From assembly GCA_013298545.1 (NCBI GenBank), contig JAAFIA010000032.1:13892-49739 (forward strand): DNA of 35,848 nucleotides. The letters run 5' to 3'. Positions 17,084 through 31,634 of this stretch are shown here, piece after piece; the first letter of the stretch is position 1, and each line of letters begins with the position of its first letter. The notes under the pieces are model-generated. The model was given only the letters and a program-made list of their open reading frames with translations. It had not been told where the DNA came from and made no database searches. The translations under genes and the position numbers were made by a program. The DNA is from Bacteroidota bacterium. Its GTDB lineage: Bacteria > Bacteroidota > Bacteroidia > Palsa-965.

Positions 17084-17581
17084 TCACTTCCGCACTACGC
17101 GCACCTGCTTATTCCAAGAAAGTTGAATTGAGTCTTTCCACAATTTCAAAACCGTTACAGCTCCTGCTTTATCGCCGGGTTTTACAAAATGACTTTGCCC
17201 GTCAACATTTAAGAATCCAACCACTTTTTCTTCACCATTTCGTTTGATTAAACCGCTGTACGAAATTTCGGGCCAATGCAGAGGCGTTTCCACAGGCGCT
17301 TTTACCGTTACTACAGGTGCTACAACTGCTTTTGGCTTGGGCATTCCCGTTTGACCCGTATTGGCATGTGTTACGGCACCATCCAAAAACGGATCGCGGT
17401 AATTGGCCACAATGGGCAAACGCGCTGCGTCCACTTGATCGATCGCTATTGGTTTTTCGATTTGTGTTGCACCAGTATGTTCGTCTTGATCTTTCAATCC
17501 GACATAAATTTTCCATCCGATTGTTCCCCAAATAGCGAGTACAACGGGCAGCAACACATACATGCTTTTTTTAGACTTCAT
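17084..17581 (-). CDS. GspC/PilP-like inner-membrane component
   Basis: 165 residues. One N-terminal transmembrane helix (about 7-27), a periplasmic linker with a YRDPFL motif (as in many PilP/GspC-type proteins) and a Pro/Val-rich stretch. A C-terminal beta-rich domain (about 105-165: YSGLIKRNGEEKVVGFLNV, HFVKPGDKAG, QLSW) resembles the HR/PilP domain that contacts the secretin N-domains. It is the last gene of the minus operon, overlapping its neighbour by one base. The assignment rests on architecture and position more than on strong motifs. Confidence 0.6.
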   Translation of the reverse strand: MKSKKSMYVLLPVVLAIWGTIGWKIYVGLKDQDEHTGATQIEKPIAIDQVDAARLPIVANYRDPFLDGAVTHANTGQTGMPKPKAVVAPVVTVKAPVETPLHWPEISYSGLIKRNGEEKVVGFLNVDGQSHFVKPGDKAGAVTVLKLWKDSIQLSWNKQVRVVRK

Positions 17582-18525
17582 CAGTTTACCGTAAAGCGAC
17601 GTCGAACAGAATAATTGCTTGTGTTTCCAGCAGCATCTTTGCTATTTACACGCCAGTAATAGGTTGTTGTGTTTTGTACACTAGGCCATGAATAAGAACC
17701 TTGCGAAGCATTCAACAATAAACTTACTTGACTGGAAGCAAACGTAGAATCGGTGCTGATGAACAAACTATCTGTCAACGCATCGCTGCTGCTTGTCCAA
17801 TCAAAATTGATGGTGCCTGGCGAAGACGCAAAAGTTTGGGCATCTGCTGGCAAAATCAATATGGGCGCAGTGGGTGCCGTTTGATCAACCGTTAAGTTTT
17901 TTACGGTCCAAGCGGTAAGCGAACTTTGGTTTTCAGCTCGAACGCTTAGCGTATAATTTCCTTCTGCAAAGGTATTGGTATAGGTTGTGCTTGTACTGGT
18001 AACGTTATCAATGGTTGTGTTATTGGAATTATCTACCACTTGAATGCGGTAAAGAGTTGCGCCGTTGATGGTGTTCCAAGTAAAACTGGTTTGGTTGTTT
18101 TGCGTAATGTAGGGATTTGCCGTTGGGCTTAGAAAGATAATCGTTTGCACACCCAAGCTCACCGAACTGTCAACCGTTAATGTGCGCGTAACCCAGTTTC
18201 CCTCGCTCGATCCGTTTTCTGGCCGCATGCGCCATTCGTATGTTAAACCGGCTTGCAATACGGGATAGAAGCGATCGCCAGCAATGGCCGAGTCGTAAAT
18301 GATTTGTTGCGGTGCTGCAAAAGATGGCCACACCAATTGCAAGCGGTATGTGGTTGCGCCGTTTAGTTCGCTCCACCAAAATAAAGGCGTTGTGGTAGAA
18401 ACGGTATCGCGGTCGGCAGGTGCGTAAAACGACATGCTTTTCCCAGACAAATCAGCCGCAATGTAATCGGGCGAACAGGCTCCGATCAAACTGGCGAGGG
18501 CAAAGAACAAGAATATTTTTTTCAT
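17581..18525 (-). CDS. Lipoprotein with Ig/FN3-like repeats inside the secretion operon
   Basis: 314 residues. Signal peptide and lipobox LIGAC at about 13-17. The mature part is three beta-sandwich-like repeats of about 90 residues, each with a TxxFxW..NxATxYRLQV.. pattern (PLFWWSELNGATTYRLQLVW; SFTWNTINGATLYRIQVV; INFDWTSSSD) ending in LTVD or FTVN. This resembles fibronectin type III-like domains. It is probably anchored in the outer or inner membrane, facing the periplasm or surface. Its neighbours are GspM-like and GspC-like genes with overlapping ends, so it is very likely part of the machine or its substrate path. No canonical T2SS or T4P component matches it. Confidence 0.75.
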   Translation of the reverse strand: MKKIFLFFALASLIGACSPDYIAADLSGKSMSFYAPADRDTVSTTTPLFWWSELNGATTYRLQLVWPSFAAPQQIIYDSAIAGDRFYPVLQAGLTYEWRMRPENGSSEGNWVTRTLTVDSSVSLGVQTIIFLSPTANPYITQNNQTSFTWNTINGATLYRIQVVDNSNNTTIDNVTSTSTTYTNTFAEGNYTLSVRAENQSSLTAWTVKNLTVDQTAPTAPILILPADAQTFASSPGTINFDWTSSSDALTDSLFISTDSTFASSQVSLLLNASQGSYSWPSVQNTTTYYWRVNSKDAAGNTSNYSVRRRFTVN

Positions 18526-19049
18526 GGAGTTTCGGTCAGAATGTTTTGCAGGTAATAGGTTGCCGTAAGGATAAGACGCTTTGTTTTTGGATCGCGTATG
18601 GTTTTAAAATCGGTAGAAACAAGACGACATGATTTCTCTTGTTCGAGGTGTTCGGCAAAGCGCAGCAAGGCTGTAAAATTTCCTTCCACCACAATGGTAT
18701 GCGTTTCGACGAGCCAGTCGCGGGTGGTGTAGCGCACGGGTGCGGGAATTTCGCGCAAGACCAGTTGTTTTGCGAGGCACCACGTACTGGTAACGCCGAG
18801 CAAATGTTCGTGCATACCGCCAACCGAATCGGTTTGTCCGAGGAGGAGATTAAATGCTTGCAATTCGCGTTCGAGTATTTTTTGGCGTTGTGGCGCACCA
18901 CTGGCACTGTCTATTTTTTTTTCAAGACGTATGCACGTGCTTCTGGTTTCGAGTGTGTTGCGTACCGAAAAGGAATAAACAATCCAAAGCAGAGCAATTG
19001 CTGTGAAGAGCAATAAACGGTTTTTAAATTTCCACGTCAGTTTTTTCAT
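18522..19049 (-). CDS. GspM/PilO-like protein
   Basis: 175 residues. A basic cytoplasmic start (MKKLTWKFKNR), one transmembrane helix at about 12-30, then a coiled-coil-prone stretch (about 35-70) and a C-terminal alpha/beta region with VVEGNFTALLRFAEHLEQ. This is the ferredoxin-like pattern of PilO/GspM (the phrase G-x-[FY]-x-x-LLRFxxxLE recurs in PilO). Predicted to form the inner-membrane alignment complex with the GspL-like protein. It overlaps both neighbours by four bases. Confidence 0.65.
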   Translation of the reverse strand: MKKLTWKFKNRLLLFTAIALLWIVYSFSVRNTLETRSTCIRLEKKIDSASGAPQRQKILERELQAFNLLLGQTDSVGGMHEHLLGVTSTWCLAKQLVLREIPAPVRYTTRDWLVETHTIVVEGNFTALLRFAEHLEQEKSCRLVSTDFKTIRDPKTKRLILTATYYLQNILTETP

Positions 19050-20245
19050 GGTGCCGTTTTTACATCAATAGAAACTGAAAATTCGCCGCGTGTTTCGCCT
19101 TTCAATTGGTTATAGGTAACGAGTGTTGCGCTCGAAATCCAAGGCATGGAATTGAGCAAGCGAATCCATTCGTTGAGGTCTGTACTTTGTTCGGTAGTTC
19201 CGTTTATGTCGATGTGGCGCGGTTGGAAGGCGATGGTATCGGTGTTGGCGGTGCGTTGGCGTGGCGCTATATTCATGCGCGTTAACCGAATGCTTTTGGG
19301 AAGCTGAAGCGCAAGTTGATCGGCGTTCCATGCTTGTTGTGGTTTTTCGATCAAACCACTTCGTTCTAAAAACACACGACGTTCGGCTGTTTTTTTTTCG
19401 AGTTGTTGTACTCGTTTCAAGGCGTCGCCATTCAAACTCAATTCTTGTTCGAGCGTTCCTTTGCGGTCCCAATAAGAGGAAAACGCAATGTAATTGACGA
19501 GCAAAATCAACAAGGTAAAACCCAGTAAAGCCAAGCCGCCAGTTCGGAAAATGCGTTGCTGTTTAAAATCATCTTGCGCCTGAACGAGCGCAGGATGCGA
19601 AGCGCTTGCTTCAAAACGCGCTCCCAAGAAATAACCAAACGCAGCCCCAAACGCAGCAACGGCATTGCCCGAAATAAAATCGTTGCCTAGGGCAATTTTT
19701 TCGGAAGGTGCCGATTCTGCATACTGCCAGTCTGAAAATTGTGCTTCCGAAAAATGCAAGGTCATTTCACCCGTTTCAATGCTTCCATCGGCTACCAAGC
19801 CAAGCGAGGCAAAACCAAATGGTCCAATAGACACACCTACAACACCTGGGATTTTGGCCATCCATTCGTCCACCACGTTACGGCGAAGCAACGAAACAAC
19901 TTCTTGTGTTTGGCCCATGATCAAATGCTGCACAACAAATTCGTTGACATTGGCATTGGGTAAAACCAATTGTAAATACTGTGCAGGTGTTGCCGCTTGT
20001 TGTTTGGGAACGGTACGGTGTAAAACACCTTTGCCTGAAAATACCAATACAATAGGAACGCCCGCTTTTAACTCGGAGAGCAAATCAGGGAGCGATGTAC
20101 ACTCCTGAATTGTTCCAATAGGTTTTACTTGATTTCCGCTGCGTTGTAAATGCATTGACCGAAATACAACGGCATCGCCACGCAGTTGTATTTCTACACC
20201 TGTACAGGTTTTTGCAGCCAGTAAGTGGTCCATGAGTTTGCGCAT
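19046..20245 (-). CDS. GspL-like (PilM-PilN fused) inner-membrane protein
   Basis: 399 residues. A cytoplasmic N-terminal region of about 230 residues fits a degenerate actin-like (PilM/GspL) fold, including VVGVSIGPFGFASLG and NAVAAFGAAFGYFLG (compare the terminal helix of PilM, which reads AYGLALR). One transmembrane helix follows at 236-256, then a coiled coil (about 262-297) and a periplasmic PilN-like domain (LPKSIRLTRMNI, INGTTEQSTDLNEWIRLLN). This is the domain order of T2SS GspL. It would recruit the ATPase on the cytoplasmic side. Confidence 0.72.
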   Translation of the reverse strand: MRKLMDHLLAAKTCTGVEIQLRGDAVVFRSMHLQRSGNQVKPIGTIQECTSLPDLLSELKAGVPIVLVFSGKGVLHRTVPKQQAATPAQYLQLVLPNANVNEFVVQHLIMGQTQEVVSLLRRNVVDEWMAKIPGVVGVSIGPFGFASLGLVADGSIETGEMTLHFSEAQFSDWQYAESAPSEKIALGNDFISGNAVAAFGAAFGYFLGARFEASASHPALVQAQDDFKQQRIFRTGGLALLGFTLLILLVNYIAFSSYWDRKGTLEQELSLNGDALKRVQQLEKKTAERRVFLERSGLIEKPQQAWNADQLALQLPKSIRLTRMNIAPRQRTANTDTIAFQPRHIDINGTTEQSTDLNEWIRLLNSMPWISSATLVTYNQLKGETRGEFSVSIDVKTAP

Positions 20246-20264
20246 CGGTATCGAAGAAACGGTG

Positions 20265-22160
20265 TTAGTAAATAACAGTAGGACGAATTAAAACAGATAG
20301 CCGACTTTTTGTTTTTGTTTTGGTGCGGCTGCTAAATAACCATTTCAGGAGCGGAATGCGTGAAAGAAAAGGTGTTCCTTTTCCACTCTCGGTGCTGATG
20401 TCTTCTTCAAGACCACCGAGCAAAATCATTTGTTCATTTTTTACACGTACCAAGGATTCAAAGGTGCGTTGTGTTGTTCCTGGAGGTGCGTCGGGCGAAA
20501 AGCGTGTGGTAAACGACGATTGTTTGACCGTAATCTCTAACGTAACTTGATCGTCGCCAGAAACCATGGGTTTGATGTTGATTGATAAATCTGCGGTAAC
20601 GGGTTTAAACGTGGTTGTAATGATGTTTTGTGGATTTTGCGCGCCAATGACGTTGTTGGATTGCTCTTTGTAGTATTCTGTTTTGCCAATACTCATTTTG
20701 GCTTCGGCACCGTTGAGCGTGGCAAGCTTGGGCGTAGAACGAATTTTTAAAATGCCTTGTTCTTCCATAGCTTGCAAATGCAGGTAAAAATTTGGACCAA
20801 CATTGCCAAGGTTGATAAAACCAAATCCATTGAGTCCGGCAATGAGGTTGTTGATGGCGTTTGCATCGAGGTTGACATCAATTCCTGGAAGAACTGTTCC
20901 GCTTGCAGGTGGCGGATTTCCAACACCTGCTTGAATGCCTGATGCGAGTGTATGCGAGTTGCTGACATCCATCAGAATGACTTCAATCAAGACCATCGGC
21001 ACAACACGGTCAATATCGCGTAGAAATGTTTCGATCTCTTGAATGCGTGGCTCTGAGCCGGATACAATCAAACTGTTTAAATCAGGAAACATTTTTACAT
21101 CGACTCCTTTTTTCAATTCGGATGGAATGTAATCCACTACTTTGTCAACGGTGCGGTATTTCAACTGAATGACTTTGGTTAAACGTAAACCCTCTTGGTT
21201 GCGGTCGCCAATAAAATAGGTTTCATTTTTTTTACGAAATGTAAATTCCGATCCGTTGAGGACGTATTTCAAAAATTCCTCATACGTTGCATTTTTGATG
21301 TGTAACGTAGCTAATCCTTTGATGTCGGTAAACAGAAAATACTGCATTTTTAAATTGGATGAAACGGCATTGATCAGTTCTCCAATAGGCGCATTCACGG
21401 CATCGAGCGTAACGAGGTTGTTATCGGTATTGAGTTGTACGCCATTGGGCAAACCCACTTTTGCAGCCGCATTGTTTTTCAATTGGCCCGCAGTATTTTT
21501 ATCGTTGCGTTCGATCATGAAAAAATCATTGTCGCTCGCTGTGATTTTCAAATCGTTTGCAAAAGCGAGTTTATCAAGTGCTTTATCGAGTGGTTGCTCT
21601 TGAATGTATGCGGTAATGAGTTTGCTTGATAAATCAGGTGCATACACGATATTCTTCCCTGTTTTTTTGGTCAACTCGCGTGCCACAGTGGATAGACTAT
21701 CGTTACGGAAATCGAACCCGATTAAGTTTTTAATTGGATCCCAATTGATGTTTAGATTTTTGGCAACGAATGTGGATGGTGGCGGTGGTGGTGTGTATTT
21801 GGTAAACACCATGATGTTGCCAATAAAGGTGATGTCTAAATTATAGCGTTGGCACAAAAACAAAAACACATCGATGACGCTTACGTTAGCGAAATTGTCG
21901 AAGATGCGTGTTTCTACACCGGGTTCAACACTTACGTTGAGGTTGTTGGAAACGGCAAGTCCGCGAATAAATTCTTGTACATTCACACCGTTTACGGAGA
22001 TGTCAACTTTGTTGTTGAGGCCGGGCACTTGCGTGGTAAGCGCTTGCAATTTTTTCTCAAGGTTGACGATGCGTTCATCGGCAGGATCGCCTGGGACGAA
22101 ACAGAGTAATGTGGGAAGCAGGAAAATAAATAAGTAGCGCAGGAGTGCTTTCATAATCAT
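20265..22160 (-). CDS. gspD: Secretin (GspD/PilQ family)
   Basis: 631 residues. Signal peptide about 1-23 (an alternative start two codons later). The N0/STN-like domain at about 45-115 is followed by a PPPPPS linker and then N-domain repeats (for example DSLSTVARELTKKTGKNIVYAPDL; VIQLKYRTVDKVVDYIP). The C-terminal secretin beta-barrel region (about 385-630) contains VPMVLIEVILMDVSNS, ILKIRSTPKLATLNGAEA, the VRVKNEQMILLGGLEE motif and the closing FLSRIPLLKWLFSS. It would form the outer-membrane gate of the machine. It overlaps the ATPase stop by one base. Confidence 0.93.
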   Translation of the reverse strand: MIMKALLRYLFIFLLPTLLCFVPGDPADERIVNLEKKLQALTTQVPGLNNKVDISVNGVNVQEFIRGLAVSNNLNVSVEPGVETRIFDNFANVSVIDVFLFLCQRYNLDITFIGNIMVFTKYTPPPPPSTFVAKNLNINWDPIKNLIGFDFRNDSLSTVARELTKKTGKNIVYAPDLSSKLITAYIQEQPLDKALDKLAFANDLKITASDNDFFMIERNDKNTAGQLKNNAAAKVGLPNGVQLNTDNNLVTLDAVNAPIGELINAVSSNLKMQYFLFTDIKGLATLHIKNATYEEFLKYVLNGSEFTFRKKNETYFIGDRNQEGLRLTKVIQLKYRTVDKVVDYIPSELKKGVDVKMFPDLNSLIVSGSEPRIQEIETFLRDIDRVVPMVLIEVILMDVSNSHTLASGIQAGVGNPPPASGTVLPGIDVNLDANAINNLIAGLNGFGFINLGNVGPNFYLHLQAMEEQGILKIRSTPKLATLNGAEAKMSIGKTEYYKEQSNNVIGAQNPQNIITTTFKPVTADLSINIKPMVSGDDQVTLEITVKQSSFTTRFSPDAPPGTTQRTFESLVRVKNEQMILLGGLEEDISTESGKGTPFLSRIPLLKWLFSSRTKTKTKSRLSVLIRPTVIY

Positions 22161-23614
22161 CAGATCGAACTGTTGAATAAAATGGGGTAAACTTCTTCGA
22201 TGGAGGTATGGCCTGTTTTCAGCAAGTTAAATGCATTGTCGGCGAGAATACCAATGTTTCGTTTTTTAAGGAGTTGTGAAACATCGGTTTCGTTGCGTTT
22301 GATGCATTCTGCCAATTCGTGATCCATGGGAATGACTTCGTAAACGGCTTTTCGTCCGCGGTAGCCCGTATGAAAACATTGTCCGCAACCTTGTGCAACG
22401 AAATGTGTTTTCAATTCAGCCGGAGCACGAAATCCGCGTGGGAAAAGTGTGGGTGAAAAGGATTCTTCTTTTTTGCAATGTGGACACAGCAAGCGAATGA
22501 GGCGTTGTGCAACACTGGTGTTTAATGTTGCCGCAATCAGAAACGGCGGTACGCCCATATCCACCAAGCGCGAAATGGTTCCCCAAGCCGAATTGGTATG
22601 GATGGTAGAAAGCACTAAATGGCCTGTCATGGCCATCCGCACCGCCATTTGTGCCGTTTCGCTATCGCGGATTTCGCCGAGCATGATGATGTTGGGATCT
22701 TGCCGCAAAAATGTTTTCAGCGCGCTGGCAAACGAGAGTCCGATGCTTTCTTTTAACTGTACTTGATTGATGCCGGGCAAGGTATATTCAATCGGGTCTT
22801 CGATGGTGAGTATATTCACTTCATCTTTATTCAATTGCTTGAGCGTGGCGTAGAGCGTGGTAGTTTTTCCAGACCCCGTAGGGCCGCTGATGAGCAAAAT
22901 GCCGTGTGGTTGTTTTACGCCTTCGAGGTAATCGCTTAGTTCGCGTTCGGAAAAACCGAGTGTTTGAATATCAATGTTGGTGGCATCGTTGTTGAGCAAA
23001 CGCAGGACTATTTTTTCGCCGTGCAAAGTGGGCAGAATCGAAACGCGGATATCAAATTTTAAATTGTCTTGCTGAAAGAAAATGCGTCCGTCTTGCGGCA
23101 AACGTTTCTCCGCAATATCGAGGTTTGCCCGAATTTTAACTTTGTTGATGAGTGCCGGATAATCGCTTTTGGCAATGGTATAACGCTCTACGAGCATGCC
23201 ATCAATACGCAAGCGTACGCGGCAACGCTCTTCATACGTTTCTACATGAATATCGCTGCTGCCGAGGCGTTTGGCTTCTGCAATGAGTAACGGCAAAAAA
23301 TCGTCGCCTTGTTTTGCAGCAAGCGATTTGCTTCCGCTCGTTTCACCACTTCGGTGCGAGGTGTTGTTTCGTAAATAATACTTGCCAAGTGTTTTCTGAA
23401 CAATGGCCGAATTGGTTTTCTCAAGCACAATGGTTTTGCCTAAAAGTAATTCCAACTCGTCTTGTAAATGCGCGGTCCAATTTTTTTCATCGACATACAA
23501 TTCGATGCGGTTTGCTTCGGCATGTTTGGGAACAACGGCATAGTGCCAAGCCTGATCGGTGGTGAGTACCTGTTGCAAATCAACAGAAAGCGGAATGTAG
23601 CTTGTTTCTGTCAT
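22160..23614 (-). CDS. gspE: GspE/PilB-type assembly ATPase
   Basis: 484 residues. A short N-terminal domain (about 1-95) is followed by the conserved motor: SSDIHVE, Walker A GPTGSGKT at 244-251, Asp box LTIEDPIEY at 269-277, Walker B IIMLGEIRD at about 309-317, and His box TGHLVLSTIHTN at 330-341. The tetracysteine zinc motif (Cys377, Cys380, Cys410, Cys413) marks the GspE/PilB extension class and argues against a PilT retraction ATPase. Cytoplasmic; it powers pseudopilus assembly with the F platform protein encoded on the plus operon. Confidence 0.95.
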   Translation of the reverse strand: MTETSYIPLSVDLQQVLTTDQAWHYAVVPKHAEANRIELYVDEKNWTAHLQDELELLLGKTIVLEKTNSAIVQKTLGKYYLRNNTSHRSGETSGSKSLAAKQGDDFLPLLIAEAKRLGSSDIHVETYEERCRVRLRIDGMLVERYTIAKSDYPALINKVKIRANLDIAEKRLPQDGRIFFQQDNLKFDIRVSILPTLHGEKIVLRLLNNDATNIDIQTLGFSERELSDYLEGVKQPHGILLISGPTGSGKTTTLYATLKQLNKDEVNILTIEDPIEYTLPGINQVQLKESIGLSFASALKTFLRQDPNIIMLGEIRDSETAQMAVRMAMTGHLVLSTIHTNSAWGTISRLVDMGVPPFLIAATLNTSVAQRLIRLLCPHCKKEESFSPTLFPRGFRAPAELKTHFVAQGCGQCFHTGYRGRKAVYEVIPMDHELAECIKRNETDVSQLLKKRNIGILADNAFNLLKTGHTSIEEVYPILFNSSI

Positions 23615-23618
23615 GGCT

Positions 23619-24149
23619 TCAGGAATATGTTGTTTCGATCCAGTTGCTCAACCAAGCATCGCTGTGAAATTGTAGTTGTGGCTGGTAAATGCGCCAGCAG
23701 CAAAGAATCATCAGCGGAATGGCAAGGGCTGCTGCAAGTGGAATGCTTGTTATCGTTTTGCGCAAGAGTAAGAGGAGTATAACTACGAGTAAGGTGCTGG
23801 CTAAACCGAGGGCATAAAAAAATATAAAATTGACAGGCGCAAAAGCGAGTGCAATGGCTACGAAGAAAAAAATATCACCAAGACCAATGTGTGTGTCGAA
23901 GATGGAAACGAATTTACGTTGCCGAACCGAAAACCAAAGTGTAAGCAAGAGAAGTTGTGTTGCAATAAAAGCCAAGTTGATCAGGAAACATGTTCCGATT
24001 TCGGTCCACGAAGCTTGCGCCGAACCGGCAAGGGCCAATGCCACACCAAGTACAAGCAGTACAAGGGGCGAGATGAGCCGTGTTCGGAAATCTTGAACAG
24101 CAAGCACAAGGGCACATACAAGTGCAACACTATCGGCAAGGCGTTCCAT
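23619..24149 (-). CDS. Prepilin peptidase, A24 family, peptidase domain only
   Basis: 176 residues, highly hydrophobic with about six transmembrane helices. The two catalytic aspartates of A24 peptidases are visible: Asp20 (AVQDFRTRLIS) and Asp92 (in GLGD). The N-terminal methyltransferase domain and zinc cysteines of classical PilD/GspO are absent, so it would cut prepilins but may not methylate them. It lies directly between the pseudopilin and ATPase genes (gaps of 1 and 4 bp). Confidence 0.85.
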   Translation of the reverse strand: MERLADSVALVCALVLAVQDFRTRLISPLVLLVLGVALALAGSAQASWTEIGTCFLINLAFIATQLLLLTLWFSVRQRKFVSIFDTHIGLGDIFFFVAIALAFAPVNFIFFYALGLASTLLVVILLLLLRKTITSIPLAAALAIPLMILCCWRIYQPQLQFHSDAWLSNWIETTYS

Positions 24150-24150
24150 G

Positions 24151-24549
24151 TTAGTCGGGGGTTACTTCTTTTAAATTTTTCTGCTGATCGATTTCCCAAA
24201 CATTGATGGCGCCATCGTTATCAAAATCTGTTTTTGCGGTAGCACGGATGATGAAATTGGTTGTGCCCGCTTCAACAATTTCAAATGTGTATTGTATGTT
24301 TTCAGAATTATCGAGTTCGAAACCTAATTCCCGTAAGTCATTGCTATATTTTGAATGTTCGTAGTAATATGTTTTTTCTAGACTGTGTAAGTAGCTGAGT
24401 GTATTTTTGGCTTCGGTGCTGCGTGTGCGGCTAATGAGGGGCATGAGATTTGGTAACGCAATCAATACTAAAATTCCGATAATGGCGAGTACCACCAATA
24501 ACTCTGTTAAAGTAAATGCTTTAAGTCGATAAATGGAAACGCGAGGCAT
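24151..24549 (-). CDS. Major (GspG-like) pseudopilin
   Basis: 132 residues. A short basic leader and class III cleavage site KA/FTLTELLVVLAIIGILVL, with Glu at mature +5 and a hydrophobic helix of about 20 residues. The residue before the cut is Ala, not the usual Gly. The C-terminal region carries a perfect EF-hand-like loop pattern, DFDNDGAINVWE (108-119), comparable to the calcium-binding C-terminus of GspG and the DxDG..xxW motif of some pilins. It heads the minus operon, consistent with the need for high expression. Confidence 0.85.
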   Translation of the reverse strand: MPRVSIYRLKAFTLTELLVVLAIIGILVLIALPNLMPLISRTRSTEAKNTLSYLHSLEKTYYYEHSKYSNDLRELGFELDNSENIQYTFEIVEAGTTNFIIRATAKTDFDNDGAINVWEIDQQKNLKEVTPD

Positions 24550-24604
24550 GGGGTTTGACGGGTTAGAGAAAAAAGATTACTAGGCTAATTAGTTTGATAA
24601 GTAA

Positions 24605-24612
24605 CAAAAATA
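24605..24612 (-). promoter_or_regulatory. -7 promoter element for the minus secretion operon
   Basis: TATTTTTG on the minus strand matches the Bacteroidota -7 consensus TAnnTTTG, about 56 bp upstream of the pseudopilin ATG. No convincing -33 TTTG at the usual 17-23 bp distance, so the promoter may be weak or activator-dependent. Confidence 0.4.
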
Positions 24613-24708
24613 CGTGTAGAAGTGCCTATTGGTGCGTAAGTTGATAAGTTGTGAATAAGTCTGCCCCAATTGTTAATTAGTTGCTTTTTATTCCGCCGTC
24701 GAAGCATG

Positions 24709-24716
24709 TATTTTTG
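24709..24716 (+). promoter_or_regulatory. -7 promoter element for the plus secretion operon
   Basis: TATTTTTG on the plus strand matches TAnnTTTG. Transcription would begin near 24723, leaving a leader of about 27 nt before the ATG at 24750, which supports that start. The nearest TTG upstream is 25 bp away, longer than usual. Confidence 0.4.
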
Positions 24717-24749
24717 AAAACGTTATTTTCCATTAAACCCCAACGCTTC

Positions 24750-25523
24750 ATGCCGTTTCGTTTATTCCTCTTTTTGCTGTTGTTTTCCGTTACTGCTTGG
24801 GCGAAACCATCGCCTGAAAAATCAAAGACGTATTTGGTGTATGTCAATTACGAATTGTACTCTGTTCGGGCGTATGTTTTGCGCGATAATGGACGAACCG
24901 TGGCGAATAATGCGTTGACGTATTTTTGGTATGGGGCCAATGCGATTCAGCAAACTAGGGGCGGTTTTGACGGAAAGCTTTTGCATGGTGATTACAAGGC
25001 TTTTTATTTGGACAATAATTTGAAAGAGGCGGGAAAATTTGCGAAGGGATTAAAGACAGGGGAATGGAAAACATGGCATGCAGGAGGAAAACTCGCAGAG
25101 ATCATCCATTACCGTAAGGGCTTACGCCATGGCATGTATGAATCGTTTGATGAGCAGGGGAAACCTGTTTTGGTGGCGCATTACCGCAACGGGCAACTGC
25201 ATGGCGAAATGATGACTTACCGCGATGGGAAAGTGGTGAACAAACGACTGTATAAACATGGGGAGGATGTTGTGCCGGAGGAGAAAAAAAGCAAAGAACC
25301 AAAATCAGAGAAAAAAGAGAAGCGTTTGAAAAAATCAAACGAAGAGCAAGTTGCACCTACGCAAACTGCAGATACAGCCTCGCAACCCCAAAAGATTTCG
25401 TTGAGAGAAAAAATAAAAACGCGCATGCACAAAAAAAAGCCAGAAGTAGGGGCATCGGAACAACCGCAGCCGAAAAAAGCGCGTAAGAAAAAAACGGTTT
25501 CTTCTACTTCATCTTTTCGCTAA
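24750..25523 (+). CDS. MORN/YwqK-type repeat protein with signal peptide
   Basis: 257 residues from the ATG at 24750, giving a clean signal peptide (FLFLLLFSVTAWA). From about residue 65 to 180 there are MORN_2/YwqK-like repeats (LHGDYKAFYLDNNLKEAG, KTGEWKTWHAGGKLAE, RHGMYESFDEQGKPV, LHGEMMTYRDGKVV). The last 80 residues are low-complexity and Lys-rich (KEPKSEKKEKRLKK...). An in-frame TTG at 24681 would lengthen it but hides the signal peptide. It leads the plus operon; its stop overlaps the next start by one base. Role in the secretion machine unknown; it may be envelope-associated. Confidence 0.75.
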   Translation: MPFRLFLFLLLFSVTAWAKPSPEKSKTYLVYVNYELYSVRAYVLRDNGRTVANNALTYFWYGANAIQQTRGGFDGKLLHGDYKAFYLDNNLKEAGKFAKGLKTGEWKTWHAGGKLAEIIHYRKGLRHGMYESFDEQGKPVLVAHYRNGQLHGEMMTYRDGKVVNKRLYKHGEDVVPEEKKSKEPKSEKKEKRLKKSNEEQVAPTQTADTASQPQKISLREKIKTRMHKKKPEVGASEQPQPKKARKKKTVSSTSSFR

Positions 25524-26791
25524 TGATGCTGCGCGGCAGTGCTTTATTTTATGCGCTAGGCATTGCCGTTTTGATCGGTTTGCTGAGTACTTCGCTCATT
25601 ATTTATGCCTATACCGAACGTTTGCTGATTCGCAAAGAAACACGCGCACAAGATTTGCAGCGCAATGTAACATCGGCGATGGAATGGTTACTTGCCGCAC
25701 CAGACGATTTTGCAGAAGGAGAAACGAAAACAGTTGATTTATATGGGCGCGGCAAAGATTCGGTGTCAATGATGCGGCGGACGTGGGGGGCTTATTTGCT
25801 TTTTAATGTGCGTTCGTTTTCGGGAAAGCAGGTGGAAGAACAAACCGTACTTGCGGGCTGGTTACCAGACTCATCAACCGCATACACTTTGTATTTAGCC
25901 GATTTGGATCAAGCGCTTTTATTATCGGGAAAAACAAGCATTACAGGAACATGCTACTTACCTGCTGCGGGAGTGCAACGGGCATATATAGAAGGACAAA
26001 GTTTTGAGGGTTTTGATCTGATTCGTGGGCCTGTGCGCAACAGTGCGCGGCGGCTAGAGCCGATCAATACAAATTTGGTTAAGCAGTTGGATGAGGTGCT
26101 GGGTGGGAAATTTTCGCCTACGGATAGTGTTGTTGCGTTTGGCGGGTTTACAGATGGCGATTCGCTTTATCACTCGTATCGTTCCAATCGGTTGGTGTTG
26201 CGCTCGGCATCGGCACTAACGTTGCGCGGTGGATTTTGCGGGGGGCAGGTCTGTATTTTTTCGTCGAAAAGTATTCGTGTAAAAAAAGAAATGCGTTTGG
26301 ATGGTGTGCTTTTGTTTGCACCTAAAATTTTTATTGAAGACGATGTTGTGGGTTCGTTTCAAGCGTTTGCTCGGGATAGTTTGCTGGTGGGCGAAAATGT
26401 GGAGGTGCGGTATCCGGGCGTATTGGGTATTGTAGCTTCGCAGCAATCGCCAGATTTGGCTTACCTCATTTTGGGCAAAAAATCGGTATGCGCGGGTTTG
26501 GTGTTTGGTAGTTCTGTGGTAGCTGATTATCGTAAGCATGTTACGGTACGACTTGCGCAAGAAACCCATGTTACAGGACAAGTGTGGTGTTTTGATTTGC
26601 TAGATGTGCAGGGGCGTGTGTGGGGCGATGTAACGACTTCGAAATTTGAATTAAAAACACCTTCAGCAACATATCTGAATCACTTGCTTGGCGCAACGAT
26701 TGATCGTAGTCGCTTGCCTATTGGTTTTTCGTATGCGGCATTGACAGCGCGTAAAGAACAACGTTTATCCATTTTACAACAGATGCGATGA
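25523..26791 (+). CDS. Large GspK/PilX-like minor pseudopilin
   Basis: 422 residues. A five-residue leader ends in Gly (MMLRG/SALFYALGIAVLIGLLSTSLI), followed by a long hydrophobic helix: a class III prepilin-like N-terminus. Mature +5 is Tyr, not Glu, as in GspK-type tip pseudopilins that lack Glu5. The large ectodomain (about 30-422) is rich in beta-strand periodicity (RLVLRSASALTLRGGFCGGQVCIFSSKSIRVKKEM), suggesting a beta-helix-like section. Its position directly before I-like and J-like pseudopilins supports a tip-complex role. Confidence 0.7.
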   Translation: MMLRGSALFYALGIAVLIGLLSTSLIIYAYTERLLIRKETRAQDLQRNVTSAMEWLLAAPDDFAEGETKTVDLYGRGKDSVSMMRRTWGAYLLFNVRSFSGKQVEEQTVLAGWLPDSSTAYTLYLADLDQALLLSGKTSITGTCYLPAAGVQRAYIEGQSFEGFDLIRGPVRNSARRLEPINTNLVKQLDEVLGGKFSPTDSVVAFGGFTDGDSLYHSYRSNRLVLRSASALTLRGGFCGGQVCIFSSKSIRVKKEMRLDGVLLFAPKIFIEDDVVGSFQAFARDSLLVGENVEVRYPGVLGIVASQQSPDLAYLILGKKSVCAGLVFGSSVVADYRKHVTVRLAQETHVTGQVWCFDLLDVQGRVWGDVTTSKFELKTPSATYLNHLLGATIDRSRLPIGFSYAALTARKEQRLSILQQMR

Positions 26792-27126
26792 GAAAAAAGA
26801 TGCCTGCATTTGCTTTGTTGGAATCGTTGTTGGCCTTGTTGGTGATCTCAACATGTTTTGCCATTGGCCTTACTGTTTATACAAATGTGAGTGCTGGAAA
26901 CCGATCTGCATTGCGGCTTAAAGCAGATTTGTTGCTTGCTGATTGGGCTTATGCGACTAAACTTGAAAAGCGTTTTCTGGACGAAGCGGTGGAGCGGGAG
27001 GGATTGCAATTGGAACGTCGCGTTCGTTTGTACAACAATACTGAAAATGTGCAGCAGCTCGATCTTTATGCTTATGTGGATGGACAAAAAATTGCGGAGT
27101 ATCATGAACTAATTCGCAAACCATGA
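26788..27126 (+). CDS. GspI-like minor pseudopilin
   Basis: 112 residues. Leader MRKKMPA/FALLESLLALLVISTCFAIGL, with Glu at +5 and a hydrophobic helix; the residue before the cut is Ala. A small C-terminal beta domain ends DLYAYVDGQKIAEYHEL. Size and position between K-like and J-like genes fit GspI. Four-base overlaps with both neighbours. Confidence 0.75.
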   Translation: MRKKMPAFALLESLLALLVISTCFAIGLTVYTNVSAGNRSALRLKADLLLADWAYATKLEKRFLDEAVEREGLQLERRVRLYNNTENVQQLDLYAYVDGQKIAEYHELIRKP

Positions 27127-27620
27127 AACGACTGGCGGCTTTTACGTTATTGGAAATGCTGATTGGGATGTTGATTAGTGGGTTGGTTGTTGCGGCGGCT
27201 TTTTCGGCTTTTCGTATGGTTTCGATGCAGCATAAACGCTATTCAGAACGGAGTGCTGCGCTTCATCAGCTAATTCATTTTCGGCATGCGTTGGGGTACG
27301 ATTTCTTTCATGCAGATAGTGTTTTGACCAGCGATGAGCAAACGATTCGTGTCTTTGGAAAGCGTGAGGTGGCGTATCATTTTACGGAACAGTTTGTGGT
27401 TAGAAACGATGGACAGGCAACGGATACTTTTTTAATAAAAAATACGGTTCTTCATATTGATGAACATCGTTCGGATTGGTTTGCGTCGAATTATTTGATT
27501 CGAGATTTACGAATCGACTTTGATTTTGGTTCGGGTCGCTTACCTTTCCGTCTTGAAAAAAAATACCCAGCAGCCATTTATTTGAAACACAATTTTGTAC
27601 AAAACGATGAGCGGAATTGA
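27123..27620 (+). CDS. GspJ/PilW-like minor pseudopilin
   Basis: 165 residues. Leader MKRLAA/FTLLEMLIGMLISGLVVAAAF with Glu at +5 and again Ala before the cut. The helix continues into an amphipathic segment and then a beta-rich domain, as in GspJ. It overlaps the I-like gene by four bases and the platform gene by 14 bases. Confidence 0.78.
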   Translation: MKRLAAFTLLEMLIGMLISGLVVAAAFSAFRMVSMQHKRYSERSAALHQLIHFRHALGYDFFHADSVLTSDEQTIRVFGKREVAYHFTEQFVVRNDGQATDTFLIKNTVLHIDEHRSDWFASNYLIRDLRIDFDFGSGRLPFRLEKKYPAAIYLKHNFVQNDERN

Positions 27621-28761
27621 TTTACGCCAAGTAAGGCGCGACACAGCGAGTAGTTCAGTTGAGCAAACCGAAAAAGGAGAATCGGGTTTGATGGCTTTGC
27701 TCAATCGCGATATTACGTTAGGGAAGAGCAAATTTGGCGATCGGCAGAAGGAACGTTTTTACGGTGAATTACAAACCTTATTGGGCGCAGGGATCGATAT
27801 TCGTACGGCTTTGGAATTGTTGGAGAGCGAGGCGGTAAAAAAAGAGGAACAGAAAATTTTTAAAGCGGTGGCAACAGCAGTGGTCAATGGCAGCACTTTG
27901 CCCGAAGCCTTGAAAGCAACAGGATATTTTTCGGAATATGAATATTATAGTATGCGCATTGGGGAAGAGACCGGACGGATGCAGGAAGTCTTAACGGATT
28001 TGGCTTCGTTTTATACCAAAAAAATTAAGCAACGGCGTAAAGTAACGAGTGCTTTATCGTACCCGTTGTTGGTGATGGGCGTTGCTTTTGGTGCGGTTTG
28101 GTTTATGTTACGTTTTGTTGTGCCGATGTTTGCGGAGATGTTGGCGCGTTTTGGAACGGAGTTGCCGGCTTTGACGAAAATGATTATTGCCTTATCGGAT
28201 GGGTTTGGGAAATATGGCCCATGGATTTTTATCGTGCTTGCAGGAACTGTATTTTTTATGATGACACAGCGCAAACAAGTCTGGTACCGTGCAGCTTCAT
28301 CGGCCTTGGTGATGCGCATACCCTACTTGGGAAAAATTGTACAGGATGTTTATTTGGAACGATTTTGTCAGGCCATGCATTTGCTCATGAGTGCGCGCAC
28401 GCCTTTGGTACAAGCCTTGGAATTGGTAGAAAAGATGATTGGTTTTTACCCGATTGAGCAAGCCGTTGTTGCGATTAAAGCCGATATCTTAAAGGGCGAA
28501 TCGTTGCAGGTGAGTATGGGGCGTTTCCCGATTTTTCCGCGCCGTTTGGTATCGTTGATTCGCGTTGCAGAAGAAGTAAATCAACTGGATATGATGTTTG
28601 GAAAATTATCGAAACAATTGACCGAAGATATTGAGCACAAAACTTCGATTTTAGGAAGTGTGATTGAGCCGGTGATGATTGTTTTCTTAGGGGTTTTGGT
28701 AGCGGTTATTTTGGTCGCTATGTATTTACCCATGTTTCAATTGAGTACATCGTTTCAGTGA
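27607..28761 (+). CDS. gspF: GspF/PilC-type inner-membrane platform protein
   Basis: 384 residues from the ATG at 27607, inside the end of the J-like gene; an in-frame TTG lies four codons upstream. Two T2SSF domains: about 45-170 (LQTLLGAGIDIRTALELLE, MRIGEETGRMQEVL) and about 250-370 (FCQAMHLLMSARTPLVQALEL, LIRVAEEVNQLDMMFGKLS). Transmembrane helices lie near 155-185, 205-225 and 350-375. It would be the rotary platform worked by the GspE ATPase from the divergent operon. Last gene of the plus operon; no clear terminator follows. Confidence 0.92.
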   Translation: MSGIDLRQVRRDTASSSVEQTEKGESGLMALLNRDITLGKSKFGDRQKERFYGELQTLLGAGIDIRTALELLESEAVKKEEQKIFKAVATAVVNGSTLPEALKATGYFSEYEYYSMRIGEETGRMQEVLTDLASFYTKKIKQRRKVTSALSYPLLVMGVAFGAVWFMLRFVVPMFAEMLARFGTELPALTKMIIALSDGFGKYGPWIFIVLAGTVFFMMTQRKQVWYRAASSALVMRIPYLGKIVQDVYLERFCQAMHLLMSARTPLVQALELVEKMIGFYPIEQAVVAIKADILKGESLQVSMGRFPIFPRRLVSLIRVAEEVNQLDMMFGKLSKQLTEDIEHKTSILGSVIEPVMIVFLGVLVAVILVAMYLPMFQLSTSFQ

Positions 28762-28824: not shown

Positions 28825-29670
28825 CTAAAGCACCTCAATTTTGCGTGTCTGCATTCCCGTTGGAGTTTCCACTTCAAGGAAATAAATACCTGCGGCCATT
28901 TGTGCGAGGTCAAGCACCAAGAAATTTTCGCCCGTAGCAGTTGAATATTGTTGCGATAAAACCGTTTCGCCAAGTATGTTGGTTAAACGAACCTGGCCGC
29001 GAAATGATTTTTCAGTCGTTAAACGAATGGTTAATTGCTCATCTGCCGGATTCGGAAATGCCTCGATTTGTGTTTGCTGCGTCAACGCAAGCAGATCCGT
29101 CATAACCGGAATTAAACAACAATTTCCGCCCGAACTGATGTTTTGTGTGCCTTGCCAACACGCATATTGTGTGCGGTGAAAACGAACTGTTGTCCCATTG
29201 AATTTGGTCATGAAAAAATGCGCAACTTGCTGCGGCGTATTGCATCCACCTTGGTTGCCATTGGTACATTGATAAGCACATATCATTTGTCCGTAACCAT
29301 TTGCATCGTTGAGTGTAACGGTTGGGTATTGCTGAATCGTGTCCACATTTGCCGGAACACCGTTGATGGTGGTTGTTGTGATCCCCAAATTGCAATTGTC
29401 GTTTGTGCCGATAAATCCGGCATACCAAACCTGCGTAACATTGGCCGCATACGTTCCAGCAATATTGATCTGAACGGCTTCGTACGAACAAATACCAATT
29501 TTTAGGTTTGGAATATTTTGATCGACATTGATGTTTAAAATTCCACCATCGTAATTCGAATAAATCACAATATTGCTCGATGAGTCGCATACCGTACTTT
29601 GCGCCTGCACAGCAACACTCAGGAGCATAATGGTGAATACAGATGTAAAATAACGTAGTGCTTTTTTCAT
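28825..29670 (-). CDS. Secreted nine-cysteine protein with T9SS type A sorting domain
   Basis: 281 residues from the ATG beginning MKKALRYFTSVFTIMLLSVAVQAQ (signal peptide). Residues about 25-190 are a cysteine-rich module (CD, GICSYE, CNLG, CAYQC, GGCNT, ACWQG, GNCC), almost colinear with one in the larger protein encoded upstream (29829-31634). The C-terminus (about 205-281: EAFPNPADEQLTIRL, GETVLSQQY, GIYFLEVETPTGMQTRKIEVL) is a classical T9SS type A sorting domain. It should be exported by Sec, then moved to the surface or medium by the T9SS. Function of the module unknown. Third gene of a tight minus operon. Confidence 0.85.
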   Translation of the reverse strand: MKKALRYFTSVFTIMLLSVAVQAQSTVCDSSSNIVIYSNYDGGILNINVDQNIPNLKIGICSYEAVQINIAGTYAANVTQVWYAGFIGTNDNCNLGITTTTINGVPANVDTIQQYPTVTLNDANGYGQMICAYQCTNGNQGGCNTPQQVAHFFMTKFNGTTVRFHRTQYACWQGTQNISSGGNCCLIPVMTDLLALTQQTQIEAFPNPADEQLTIRLTTEKSFRGQVRLTNILGETVLSQQYSTATGENFLVLDLAQMAAGIYFLEVETPTGMQTRKIEVL

Positions 29671-29694
29671 GGCGGTGGTTTTAGTTTGGTGCAA

Positions 29695-29828: not shown

Positions 29829-31634
29829 CTATTCTTTGATGAGGAGTAAATGATTTTGTTCGAGCGGAATGAAACCATCGAAATTCAGCGTATAACTTCC
29901 GGCGGGTAATTCCGAAACATCAAAAGCAAATGAGTTCCATCCTTTGACCGCAAAAACGCGTTCGGTTCGAATAATTTTTCCATGAAGATCGGACCAATAA
30001 ATCTGCATCTCGCCTTCTTCTTTTGCGGATAGTTGAACGACAAAACGATCCTTTGTAGGATTGGGAAACCCAATGAGTTGTGTCGATGATTCGGTACACG
30101 CACTGCGTTCCAAAACGCGTACCGGAAAGGTTTCCGATTGGCCGTTGTAATCGGTTTGACGTAGGCGATAATAACTCGTTTCCGTAAGTTGTTCGGTGTC
30201 GGTATAACGATATAAGGATGGTTGCGAACTTGTTCCTGCTCCAGGAACGACTGCAATTTCTTCAAATACAATGCCGTCGGTAGAACGCTCCAAGGTGAAA
30301 TAATGGTTGTTGATTTCAGATGCCGTTTCCCACGAAATCACCGCTTGGTTGTTTGTGGTGCAGTGTGCAGAAAAATAACTCAGCTCAACGGGTAATGCTT
30401 GGGCTACAAGACAACAATTGCCGCCAGTAGAAACCAATTGCGTTCCTGACCAGCAACCATATTGCGCCATCTGATACCGCAAGGTTCCGCCCAAATGAGT
30501 CAAAAAATAATGCGCCACTTGTCCTGTTGTATTGCAACCACCGTTATTGCCCAAATTGCATTGATATGCACAAACAATATTCGAACTTCCGTTAGGAACA
30601 ATGATGGTTGAGGGGGGATAAATATTGATGGAGGTAATCCCCGCAGGAACACCGTTGATTGTTGTGTTGATGGCACTCATACTGCAATGTGCATTGGCAC
30701 CATTGTAACCTGCATACCTTACTGCTGTAACATTGCCAACATAGGTTCCAGCGATATTGATGGTAACACCCTCGTACGAACAAATACCAATTTTTAGATT
30801 GGGAATATTTTGATCCACATTGATGTTCAACACACCGCCATCGTAATTGGAATAAATAATCAGGTTGCCATTCGGATCGCACGAATTGGTGAAAAGCGCA
30901 GGTGTCCAGATAAAGGTGCGGCCTGATGGCGGAAGTGCCGTATTGCGACTGAGTACCGTTTGCGAATTGATGATGTTGGCATTGGTTGAATTGGCCCACG
31001 ACGTCGCAGAATTTAAATAGCGCGCGTTCCAGTCAGCATTATTCGCACCGCGCAGACCAATTTGAGCAACAACCGTATTGGTGGCATTGGTTGCCGCACA
31101 GGCACCGTAAATTACTTGGATCACATTGGATGTTTCAAGCAAACGAATCTGGAAATTCCAATCGGCACCCGCCGCATTATTCGCCGATCGGCGGCAGTTA
31201 TTCCATTGTACAACAAACACACGGTTGGGCGAAACACCTGTTGTCGTGTATTCTATGGTTGAAGCATTGCTCACCAAATCGAGTCCAAGGGCCGAAATCG
31301 CTCCTGCATACCCTGTTGCGCCAGAAATGGGTTGATAACCATTGGCCAAGGAAGCTGTTGCTCCAAATGTAATGTAGCCGTTGCCGTTTACAGAACAAGC
31401 ATTATAAGCAACACTATTAAACGTAAACGAAAATGGAATGGGCACACTCACTGGCGCAGGATCGGTCCAACCGGCAGCATGAACTGTTGTGCCAACTATT
31501 GGCGAATACGTTCCGGCGGTTTCCGAAAACGCATATCCAGAAACTTGTGCTGTCGCAACTTTGGGGGCAAGAAACAAAGTCAATACAACAAGCAGGGTGA
31601 ACTGTGTTTTGATTTTGTTGATTTTTTTCATCAC
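29829..31634 (-). CDS. Large secreted multidomain protein with T9SS type A sorting domain
   Basis: 601 residues. Signal peptide 1-29 (LLVVLTLFLAPKVATAQ). Residues about 30-250 are a beta-rich domain common in Bacteroidota secreted proteins (YAFSETAGTYSPIVGT, CSVNGNGYITFG, VFVVQWNN). Residues about 250-410 are the nine-cysteine module shared with the downstream protein (GICSYEG, CAYQC, GGCNT, GCWSG, GNCC). Residues 415-510 resemble the LPVELSYFSA...SWETASEINN...FTLERSTDG module often found before T9SS tails, and about 520-601 is a type A sorting domain (GFPNPTKDRFVVQL). A start two codons later is equally possible for MKK. Confidence 0.87.
   Translation of the reverse strand: MMKKINKIKTQFTLLVVLTLFLAPKVATAQVSGYAFSETAGTYSPIVGTTVHAAGWTDPAPVSVPIPFSFTFNSVAYNACSVNGNGYITFGATASLANGYQPISGATGYAGAISALGLDLVSNASTIEYTTTGVSPNRVFVVQWNNCRRSANNAAGADWNFQIRLLETSNVIQVIYGACAATNATNTVVAQIGLRGANNADWNARYLNSATSWANSTNANIINSQTVLSRNTALPPSGRTFIWTPALFTNSCDPNGNLIIYSNYDGGVLNINVDQNIPNLKIGICSYEGVTINIAGTYVGNVTAVRYAGYNGANAHCSMSAINTTINGVPAGITSINIYPPSTIIVPNGSSNIVCAYQCNLGNNGGCNTTGQVAHYFLTHLGGTLRYQMAQYGCWSGTQLVSTGGNCCLVAQALPVELSYFSAHCTTNNQAVISWETASEINNHYFTLERSTDGIVFEEIAVVPGAGTSSQPSLYRYTDTEQLTETSYYRLRQTDYNGQSETFPVRVLERSACTESSTQLIGFPNPTKDRFVVQLSAKEEGEMQIYWSDLHGKIIRTERVFAVKGWNSFAFDVSELPAGSYTLNFDGFIPLEQNHLLLIKE

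What the first reader, a model, noticed from the sequence alone, without database searches (positions are those of the whole stretch)
17084..28761. Complete T2SS/T4P-like machine in a Bacteroidota genome, split into two divergent operons
Thirteen consecutive genes encode pseudopilins G, K, I and J, a prepilin peptidase, ATPase E, secretin D, GspL-like, GspM-like and GspC-like proteins, platform F, plus two non-canonical members. Sequence shows Walker and tetracysteine motifs, the secretin C-terminal motif and four class III prepilin-like N-termini. Bacteroidota normally secrete by T9SS; T2SS-like sets are rare there (as I recall, reported in Cytophaga hutchinsonii). The G-K-I-J set and absence of PilT point to secretion; no H-like pseudopilin was found.
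Basis: partly seen in the sequence, partly recalled or inferred. Interest (0 to 1): 0.82.

Follow-up and report, generated by a model that had tools for sequence, protein, structure and literature searches.

The report
Bacteroidota T2SS-like pseudopilus secretion machine
This is a complete 13-gene copy of a pilus-like export machine that many Bacteroidota carry beside their usual T9SS; it is already known in outline from Cytophaga hutchinsonii, but its predicted filament tip (a beta-solenoid resembling the DNA-uptake pilin ComZ) and two regularly associated extra proteins had not been described, so it is useful rather than startling.

Summary
Thirteen contiguous genes (17084-28761) encode a complete type IV filament (TFF) machine: secretin, one assembly ATPase, platform F, a GspL-like fusion, M-like and C-like proteins, a minimal prepilin peptidase, a major pilin, three minor-pilin-like proteins, a MORN protein and an Ig-like lipoprotein. 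The genome has no PilT, second secretin or other canonical prepilin.

It is not a canonical T2SS. It belongs to the 'Bacteroidota T2SS' of C. hutchinsonii/Pedobacter, which Denise et al. 2019 placed apart from T2SS. That kind is patchy, not rare (16% of sampled Bacteroidia genomes, 23% of genera). The divergent layout is local to this family; two modules (G-O-E-D-L-M-Ig-C and MORN-K-I-J-F) are conserved and change places.

New here: the two 'non-canonical' genes are regular members; the tip pilin is not GspK by sequence but is predicted to carry a ComZ-like beta-solenoid; PilT is absent in 48/48 genomes tested; other classes carry the machine beside a separate PilT-bearing pilus; the major pilin ends in a near-invariant DxDxDG motif.

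Best reading: a non-retracting pseudopilus that exports or presents surface proteins. An adhesive tip filament is the main rival. Function is untested in this organism.

The parts
17084..17581 (-). C-like inner-membrane protein: one TM helix, conserved NYRDPF motif and a PilP/GspC-HR-like C-terminal domain (assignment by position and pattern)
   Evidence: No Pfam hit; conserved in 37 of 41 loci; alignment
17581..18525 (-). Lipoprotein (lipobox LIGAC) with Ig/FnIII-like repeats, conserved member between M and C
   Evidence: Weak Ig-family hits; in 36 of 41 loci and 42 of 50 full named loci
18522..19049 (-). GspM/PilO-like bitopic protein (by position)
   Evidence: No family hit; conserved neighbour of L
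19046..20245 (-). GspL-like fusion: actin-like cytoplasmic domain, long helix with TM segment, PilN/GspL periplasmic domain
   Evidence: PilN 1.7e-6; AF2 pLDDT 85.5; Foldseek top 4PHT GspL E 6e-8; VIA Z 10-12 to PilM, GspL and XcpY
20265..22160 (-). Secretin D with two STN-like N-terminal parts and a single Secretin_N (N1) domain
   Evidence: only secretin of the genome
22160..23614 (-). Assembly ATPase E (GspE/PilB type), Walker A/B and tetracysteine
   Evidence: only T2SSE of the genome
23619..24149 (-). Minimal A24 prepilin peptidase O without the N-terminal methylase/zinc part; D20 and D92 (GxGD)
   Evidence: PF01478 0.009; both Asp invariant in 36/36
24151..24549 (-). Major pilin G; cleavage after Ala (KA|FTLTE); C-terminal DFDNDG motif
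   Evidence: N_methyl 2e-6; best NCBIfam match PilA_Myxo; motif near-invariant in 37 rows
24550..24749 (.). Divergent intergenic region between the two modules (promoters not identified)
   Evidence: Sequence; promoter scan not above shuffles
24750..25523 (+). Exported MORN-repeat protein with Lys-rich C-terminal tail, conserved member
   Evidence: MORN_2 2.2e-10; found in 27 loci, conserved cationic tail
25523..26791 (+). Putative tip pilin K: pilin-like N-helix and sheet with an inserted beta-solenoid, ComZ-like in predicted fold
   Evidence: AF2 pLDDT 91.8; Foldseek top hit ComZ 6QVI E 2e-4; VIA Z 11.6, tied with other beta-solenoids
26788..27126 (+). Minor pilin I-like (MPA|FALLE N-terminus)
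   Evidence: Weak Com-pilin hits only; position conserved
27123..27620 (+). Minor pilin J-like (LAA|FTLLE N-terminus)
   Evidence: N_methyl 2.8e-5
27595..28761 (+). Platform protein F (GspF/PilC type); the start may lie slightly downstream of TTG 27595
   Evidence: T2SSF 2.6e-43, two stretches; TIGR02120 238 bits, cut-off 424; only one in the genome

Best explanation
The locus is a complete, intact-looking copy of the Bacteroidota 'T2SS-like' TFF machine, separate from the sampled proteobacterial T2SS and from the PilT-bearing pili of the same phylum. Inferred working: Sec exports the substrates; O cleaves the prepilins; K, I and J form a tip on which E, with F and the L-M-C inner-membrane platform, polymerises G into a pseudopilus; with no PilT it is not actively retracted. 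The filament works against secretin D to push folded, mostly surface-associated proteins through the outer membrane, the beta-solenoid of K acting as cap or as substrate- or surface-engaging head. The Ig lipoprotein and the MORN protein are dedicated envelope parts (anchor, pilotin or wall-side adaptor: guessed). Shown: gene content, motifs, conservation, clade, no PilT found. Predicted: folds of K and L. Inferred: assembly order, secretion, role of the tip.
For: All parts present and conserved in the same two modules across Bacteroidia. One clade with Pedobacter-type loci in E, D and F trees. L is GspL-like by predicted fold. No PilT in the own genome or in 48/48 genomes with the system. In C. 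hutchinsonii, D, F and G mutants grow poorly on cellobiose and cellulose, have lower cell-bound beta-glucosidase, altered outer-membrane proteins and weaker cellulose adhesion, with normal gliding (PMC5553014). Growth loss on soluble cellobiose is better explained by surface-protein export or presentation than by adhesion alone.
Against: Extracellular soluble proteins were hardly changed in the C. hutchinsonii mutants, and the two affected outer-membrane proteins were judged unlikely to be direct substrates. No substrate is known. Secretin architecture and major pilin are T4aP-like. Nothing was measured in this organism, an uncultured-type assembly in 154 contigs.
Confidence: 0.55

Rival explanations
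1. A non-retracting adhesive filament: the same machine extrudes a thin pilus whose K tip is a beta-solenoid adhesin that binds polysaccharide or surfaces; there are no dedicated secreted substrates.
For: Tip pilin with a large beta-solenoid, a fold common in glycan-binding and lyase proteins; T4aP-like secretin and major pilin; C. hutchinsonii mutants adhere less to cellulose (92% against 67-75%) with unchanged supernatant; Denise et al. place the system with T4aP.
Against: Mutants are also impaired on soluble cellobiose and in beta-glucosidase; no difference in cell morphology was seen by electron microscopy of the chu_3195 mutant; a GspL-type platform protein.
Confidence: 0.27
2. A DNA-uptake (competence) pilus: K is a ComZ-type DNA receptor and the filament brings DNA to ComEC.
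For: Predicted fold of K resembles Thermus ComZ, a tip-associated DNA-binding pilin; ComEC is present in the genome.
Against: ComEC is in 80/80 Bacteroidia genomes tested, with or without the system; net charge of the K ectodomain ranges from -20 to +10 among relatives (weak evidence, since ComZ too lacks a positive patch); F. johnsoniae, which carries Fjoh_0611-0622, was not transformable in the one condition set tested (PMC7965970).
Confidence: 0.1
3. A canonical proteobacterial-type T2SS acquired by horizontal transfer.
For: Best TIGR model for D, E and F is the T2SS one, for E only by about one bit over PilB; L is GspL-like by fold; a T2SS sister position for E is not rejected (p-AU 0.476).
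Against: All scores lie far below the T2SS equivalog cut-offs; no T2SSG, T2SSK, T2SSC or T2SSL match and one Secretin_N instead of three; own clade in E, D and F trees; Denise et al. find the Bacteroidetes system away from T2SS.
Confidence: 0.04

Closest known systems
Putative T2SS of Cytophaga hutchinsonii CHU_3191-CHU_3202, with Fjoh_0611-0622 and Phep_1100-1112 (Wang et al. 2017, PMC5553014); the 'so-called T2SS of Bacteroidetes' of Denise et al. 2019 (PMC6668835)
   Same: Same gene order G-O-E-D-L-M-x-C as numbered in the paper, with F and minor pilins adjoining; Pedobacter and Sporocytophaga loci fall in the same family here
   Different: Here the MORN-K-I-J-F module is divergent; the paper did not assign roles to the Ig lipoprotein or a MORN protein, nor identify the K-like beta-solenoid pilin. 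CHU sequences themselves were not compared here
Canonical T2SS (Gsp/Pul/Xcp)
   Same: Secretin, E, F, prepilin peptidase, GspL-type fusion by fold, pseudopilin set, no PilT
   Different: One Secretin_N, no T2SSG/T2SSK/T2SSC/T2SSL sequence match, no H found, beta-solenoid tip, separate clade
Type IVa pilus
   Same: Secretin N-domain layout as HofQ; PilA-like major pilin; PilB-like ATPase score equal to GspE
   Different: No PilT in 49 genomes counting the own one; PilM and PilN fused; the same phylum has its own separate T4aP loci
Thermus thermophilus competence pilin ComZ (6QVI)
   Same: Predicted fold of K: pilin-like helix and sheet with a large beta-solenoid placed before the last strand
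   Different: About 10% identity; DNA binding untested; Z tied with unrelated beta-solenoids, so kinship is not shown

Membership tests
Bacteroidota T2SS-like TFF machine (C. hutchinsonii/Pedobacter kind) | D, E, F, G, O with L/M/C-like genes in the order G-O-E-D-L-M-x-C | tested here: met
   order as listed in PMC5553014
Bacteroidota T2SS-like TFF machine (C. hutchinsonii/Pedobacter kind) | E, D and F group with homologues from Pedobacter-type and other Bacteroidota loci, apart from T2SS | tested here: met
   E 99*, D 99*, F 95* (quick trees, SH-aLRT only, small reference sets)
Bacteroidota T2SS-like TFF machine (C. hutchinsonii/Pedobacter kind) | Loss causes surface-protein, cellulose-use or adhesion defects | not testable with these tools
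   Known only for C. hutchinsonii
Canonical T2SS | GspD with three Secretin_N (N1-N3) domains | tested here: not met
   K-12 GspD 3 stretches, window D 1
Canonical T2SS | GspG with T2SSG domain (PF08334) | tested here: not met
   K-12 GspG 6.1e-38; window G no hit
Canonical T2SS | GspK tip with T2SSK signature | tested here: not met
   K-12 GspK hits; window K no hit
Canonical T2SS | GspC with T2SSC domain | tested here: not met
   K-12 GspC 1.1e-7; window C no hit
Canonical T2SS | GspL: actin-like cytoplasmic domain fused to a ferredoxin-like periplasmic domain | tested here: met
   By predicted fold only; the T2SSL sequence model does not match
Canonical T2SS | GspH pseudopilin | tested here: inconclusive
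   No further N_methyl protein in the genome, but divergent pilins such as I and K escape that model
Canonical T2SS | Secretes folded proteins | not testable with these tools
   No experiment in this organism
T4aP | PilT retraction ATPase | tested here: not met
   One T2SSE in the genome, of E type; genome 97.35% complete
T4aP | Separate PilM and PilN | tested here: not met
   Fused in one 399-aa protein by fold
T4aP | PilQ-type secretin with one N1 domain | tested here: met
   Same Pfam layout as HofQ plus extra N-terminal parts
T4aP | E, D and F inside a T4aP clade | tested here: inconclusive
   Outside the in-phylum T4aP clade, but other T4aP references are few; Denise et al. report grouping with T4aP
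ComZ-type tip pilin | Pilin fold with inserted beta-solenoid | tested here: met
   AF2 model and Foldseek only; homology not shown
ComZ-type tip pilin | DNA binding and role in transformation | not testable with these tools
   A charge survey gives no support

The most novel reading that the evidence does not exclude
The Bacteroidota machine is a distinct class of type IV filament, neither T2SS nor T4aP: a PilT-less filament tipped by a ComZ-like beta-solenoid pilin, with dedicated MORN and Ig-lipoprotein parts, which works mainly as a tip-adhesin or surface-presentation device and co-exists with T9SS.
Probability: 0.35. Interest if true: 0.65.

Novelty: new member of a known kind. Interest (0 to 1): 0.42.

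Why it matters
The 'Bacteroidota T2SS' is widespread beside T9SS, yet its function and class are open; Denise et al. flagged it as a possible independent invention of secretion. This locus and its relatives give a full parts list (13 recurrent members, two not counted before), a structural prediction for the tip, and a separation from the pili of the same phylum, so deletions in cultivable Pedobacter or Cytophaga relatives could decide between secretion, adhesion and DNA uptake.

Tried and rejected
Rarity: rejected (one search covers the phylum but counts all secretins). Hidden pilT or second pilus in the genome: searched and not found (genome 97.35% complete in 154 contigs). ComEC co-occurrence: uninformative, 80/80. 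T9SS co-occurrence: uninformative, SprA in 79/80. Sigma-70 promoter scan: no excess over shuffles, and Bacteroidota promoters differ. K as GspK: no T2SSK match. PDB profile search with K: only weak hits. Literature searches for later work on this machine found nothing beyond Wang 2017 and Denise 2019 in the open-licence library; subscription papers were not searched. AU tests of BAC+T4aP and of BAC+T2SS without the second loci did not finish. One T2SS yardstick region (L251) turned out to lie on an E. coli plasmid that also carries stcE; its Etp D/E/F/G/K proteins were used only as search seeds, were left out of the trees, and no more of that kind was fetched.
Full report
Observation. The 13 genes are present and contiguous at 17084-28761. 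On the minus strand, read from the divergent region: G 24151-24549, O 23619-24149, E 22160-23614, D 20265-22160, L 19046-20245, M 18522-19049, Ig lipoprotein 17581-18525, C 17084-17581. On the plus strand: MORN about 24750-25523, K 25523-26791, I 26788-27126, J 27123-27620, F 27595-28761. Pfam and NCBIfam give strong matches for secretin, ATPase and platform, moderate ones for pilin N-termini and PilN, a weak one for the peptidase, and none of weight for C, M and K. E, D and F score best with T2SS models (E only by a bit over PilB) but below their equivalog cut-offs. Walker and tetracysteine motifs are intact, and the two catalytic aspartates of O are invariant in 36 aligned relatives.

Genome context. 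The window lies in a 4.53 Mb assembly, 97% complete, 154 contigs. It has one T2SSF-type protein (two repeats), one T2SSE ATPase and one secretin, all in this locus, and only two N_methyl matches, G and J. No PilT was found. T9SS (SprA) and ComEC are present; two genes next to F encode proteins with T9SS sorting domains.

Distribution. The window's GspD finds 62 of 395 Bacteroidia genomes and 46 of 197 genera. In the own genus it is present in some genomes and absent from two others that are 99-100% complete, so it is patchy. A scan of named genomes confirmed 564 stretches; the best 80 include Pedobacter, Hymenobacter, Sporocytophaga, Mucilaginibacter, Flavobacteriales and Bacteroidales. A 40 kb Persicobacter plasmid carries the set.

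Recurrent parts and layout. Iterated profiles over 40 relatives show two recurrent modules, G-O-E-D-L-M-Ig-C and MORN-K-I-J-F. Their mutual order varies: of 28 loci that hold both D and K, 13 have K downstream on the same strand, 7 upstream on the same strand, 5 convergent and 3 divergent; the three are the window, a congener and a family member. In 50 near-full-length named loci Ig and C are found in 42, MORN in 30 and K in 29; where the second module is missing it may lie outside the stretch fetched. So the two 'non-canonical' genes are regular members. The MORN protein has an export signal, MORN_2 repeats and, in most relatives, a Lys-rich tail.

Retraction. In 48 Bacteroidia genomes with the system every above-cut-off T2SSE match is an E-type ATPase (one genome has two) and none is PilT. 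Other classes of the phylum carry PilB-PilT-PilC-PilQ loci and, separately, a locus homologous to this one without PilT, with D, E, G and in some cases C, K and F matching our profiles.

Phylogeny. Quick maximum-likelihood trees (SH-aLRT only) put the window with the Bacteroidia loci and the second loci of other classes in one clade: E 99* after three long branches were removed, D 99*, F 95*. In-phylum T4aP lies apart on starred branches. The sampled T2SS secretins form their own group (97*), and a sister relation of the clade to T2SS is not rejected for E (p-AU 0.476). Reference sets are small. Denise et al. 2019, with a broad sample, found the Bacteroidetes system with T4aP and away from T2SS. 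Both agree that it is not inside T2SS; whether it is inside T4aP I cannot decide.

Domain tests. K-12 GspD has three Secretin_N stretches, window D one, as in HofQ. K-12 GspG, GspK, GspC and GspL hit their T2SS families and the window proteins do not. The major pilin is closest to the Myxococcus PilA model and ends in DFDGDGxxNxWEIDQ...D, near-invariant in 37 rows; a role in Ca2+ binding, as in GspG, is inference. The residue before the expected cleavage is Ala in 32 of 36 G proteins.

Structures. L (pLDDT 85.5) matches cytoplasmic GspL (4PHT, E 6e-8) and GspL/PilN-type periplasmic domains, so the GspL-like reading holds by fold. K (pLDDT 91.8) is a long N-helix, a pilin-like sheet and a large beta-solenoid followed by a last strand; the top Foldseek hit is Thermus ComZ, E 2e-4. 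In the second look Z is 11.6 over 221 residues, tied with other beta-solenoids such as ice-binding proteins, so the solenoid is well supported but kinship with ComZ is not shown. ComZ itself was judged GspK-like in its pilin part and tip-located (PMC6561018).

Mechanism. Shown: parts, motifs, clade, no PilT found. Predicted: folds. Inferred: a K-I-J tip primes G polymerisation by E on F/L/M/C; the pseudopilus works through D and is not actively retracted. In C. hutchinsonii, D, F and G mutants are impaired on cellulose and cellobiose, have less beta-glucosidase activity and cellulose adhesion and altered outer-membrane proteins, but normal gliding and hardly changed extracellular proteins (PMC5553014). 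That fits export or presentation of surface proteins best, a tip adhesin nearly as well, and DNA uptake poorly.

Verdict. A real, complete machine; a new member of the known but little-understood Bacteroidota T2SS-like kind. The new content concerns the kind: recurrent MORN and Ig members, a ComZ-like predicted tip, general lack of PilT, and separation from the phylum's own pili.

Noticed in passing
28825-29694 and 29829-31634 (- strand): Two neighbouring genes encode proteins with T9SS type A sorting domains and a shared Cys-rich middle part; they look like paralogues lying next to the TFF locus.
   Followed up: no
L185 (Persicobacter sp. JZB09 plasmid CP012857.1, 40 kb): A plasmid record holds the whole set (K, MORN, G, O, E, D, L, M, Ig, C, minor pilins, F), so the machine may move horizontally.
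   Followed up: partly
24151-24549, C-terminus of G: Near-invariant DFDGDGxxNxWEIDQ motif to the very C-terminus of the major pilin, resembling an EF-hand-like Ca2+ loop.
   Followed up: partly
24750-25523 and relatives: The Lys-rich tail of the MORN protein is kept in charge (about +6 to +19 in the last 80 residues in most relatives) but not in sequence; no explanation.
   Followed up: no
prepilins in the window and relatives: The residue before the expected cleavage is usually Ala, not the canonical Gly (32/36 G proteins; also I and J of the window), and the peptidase is a minimal form.
   Followed up: partly
L104 and genome G654: One Bacteroidia genome has two copies of E and D, apparently two such systems.
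   Followed up: no
L227 12832-16161, L228 3757-7074, L230 (5' end): In other classes of the phylum very large (over 1100 aa) proteins matching the Ig-lipoprotein profile lie in the homologous loci.
   Followed up: no
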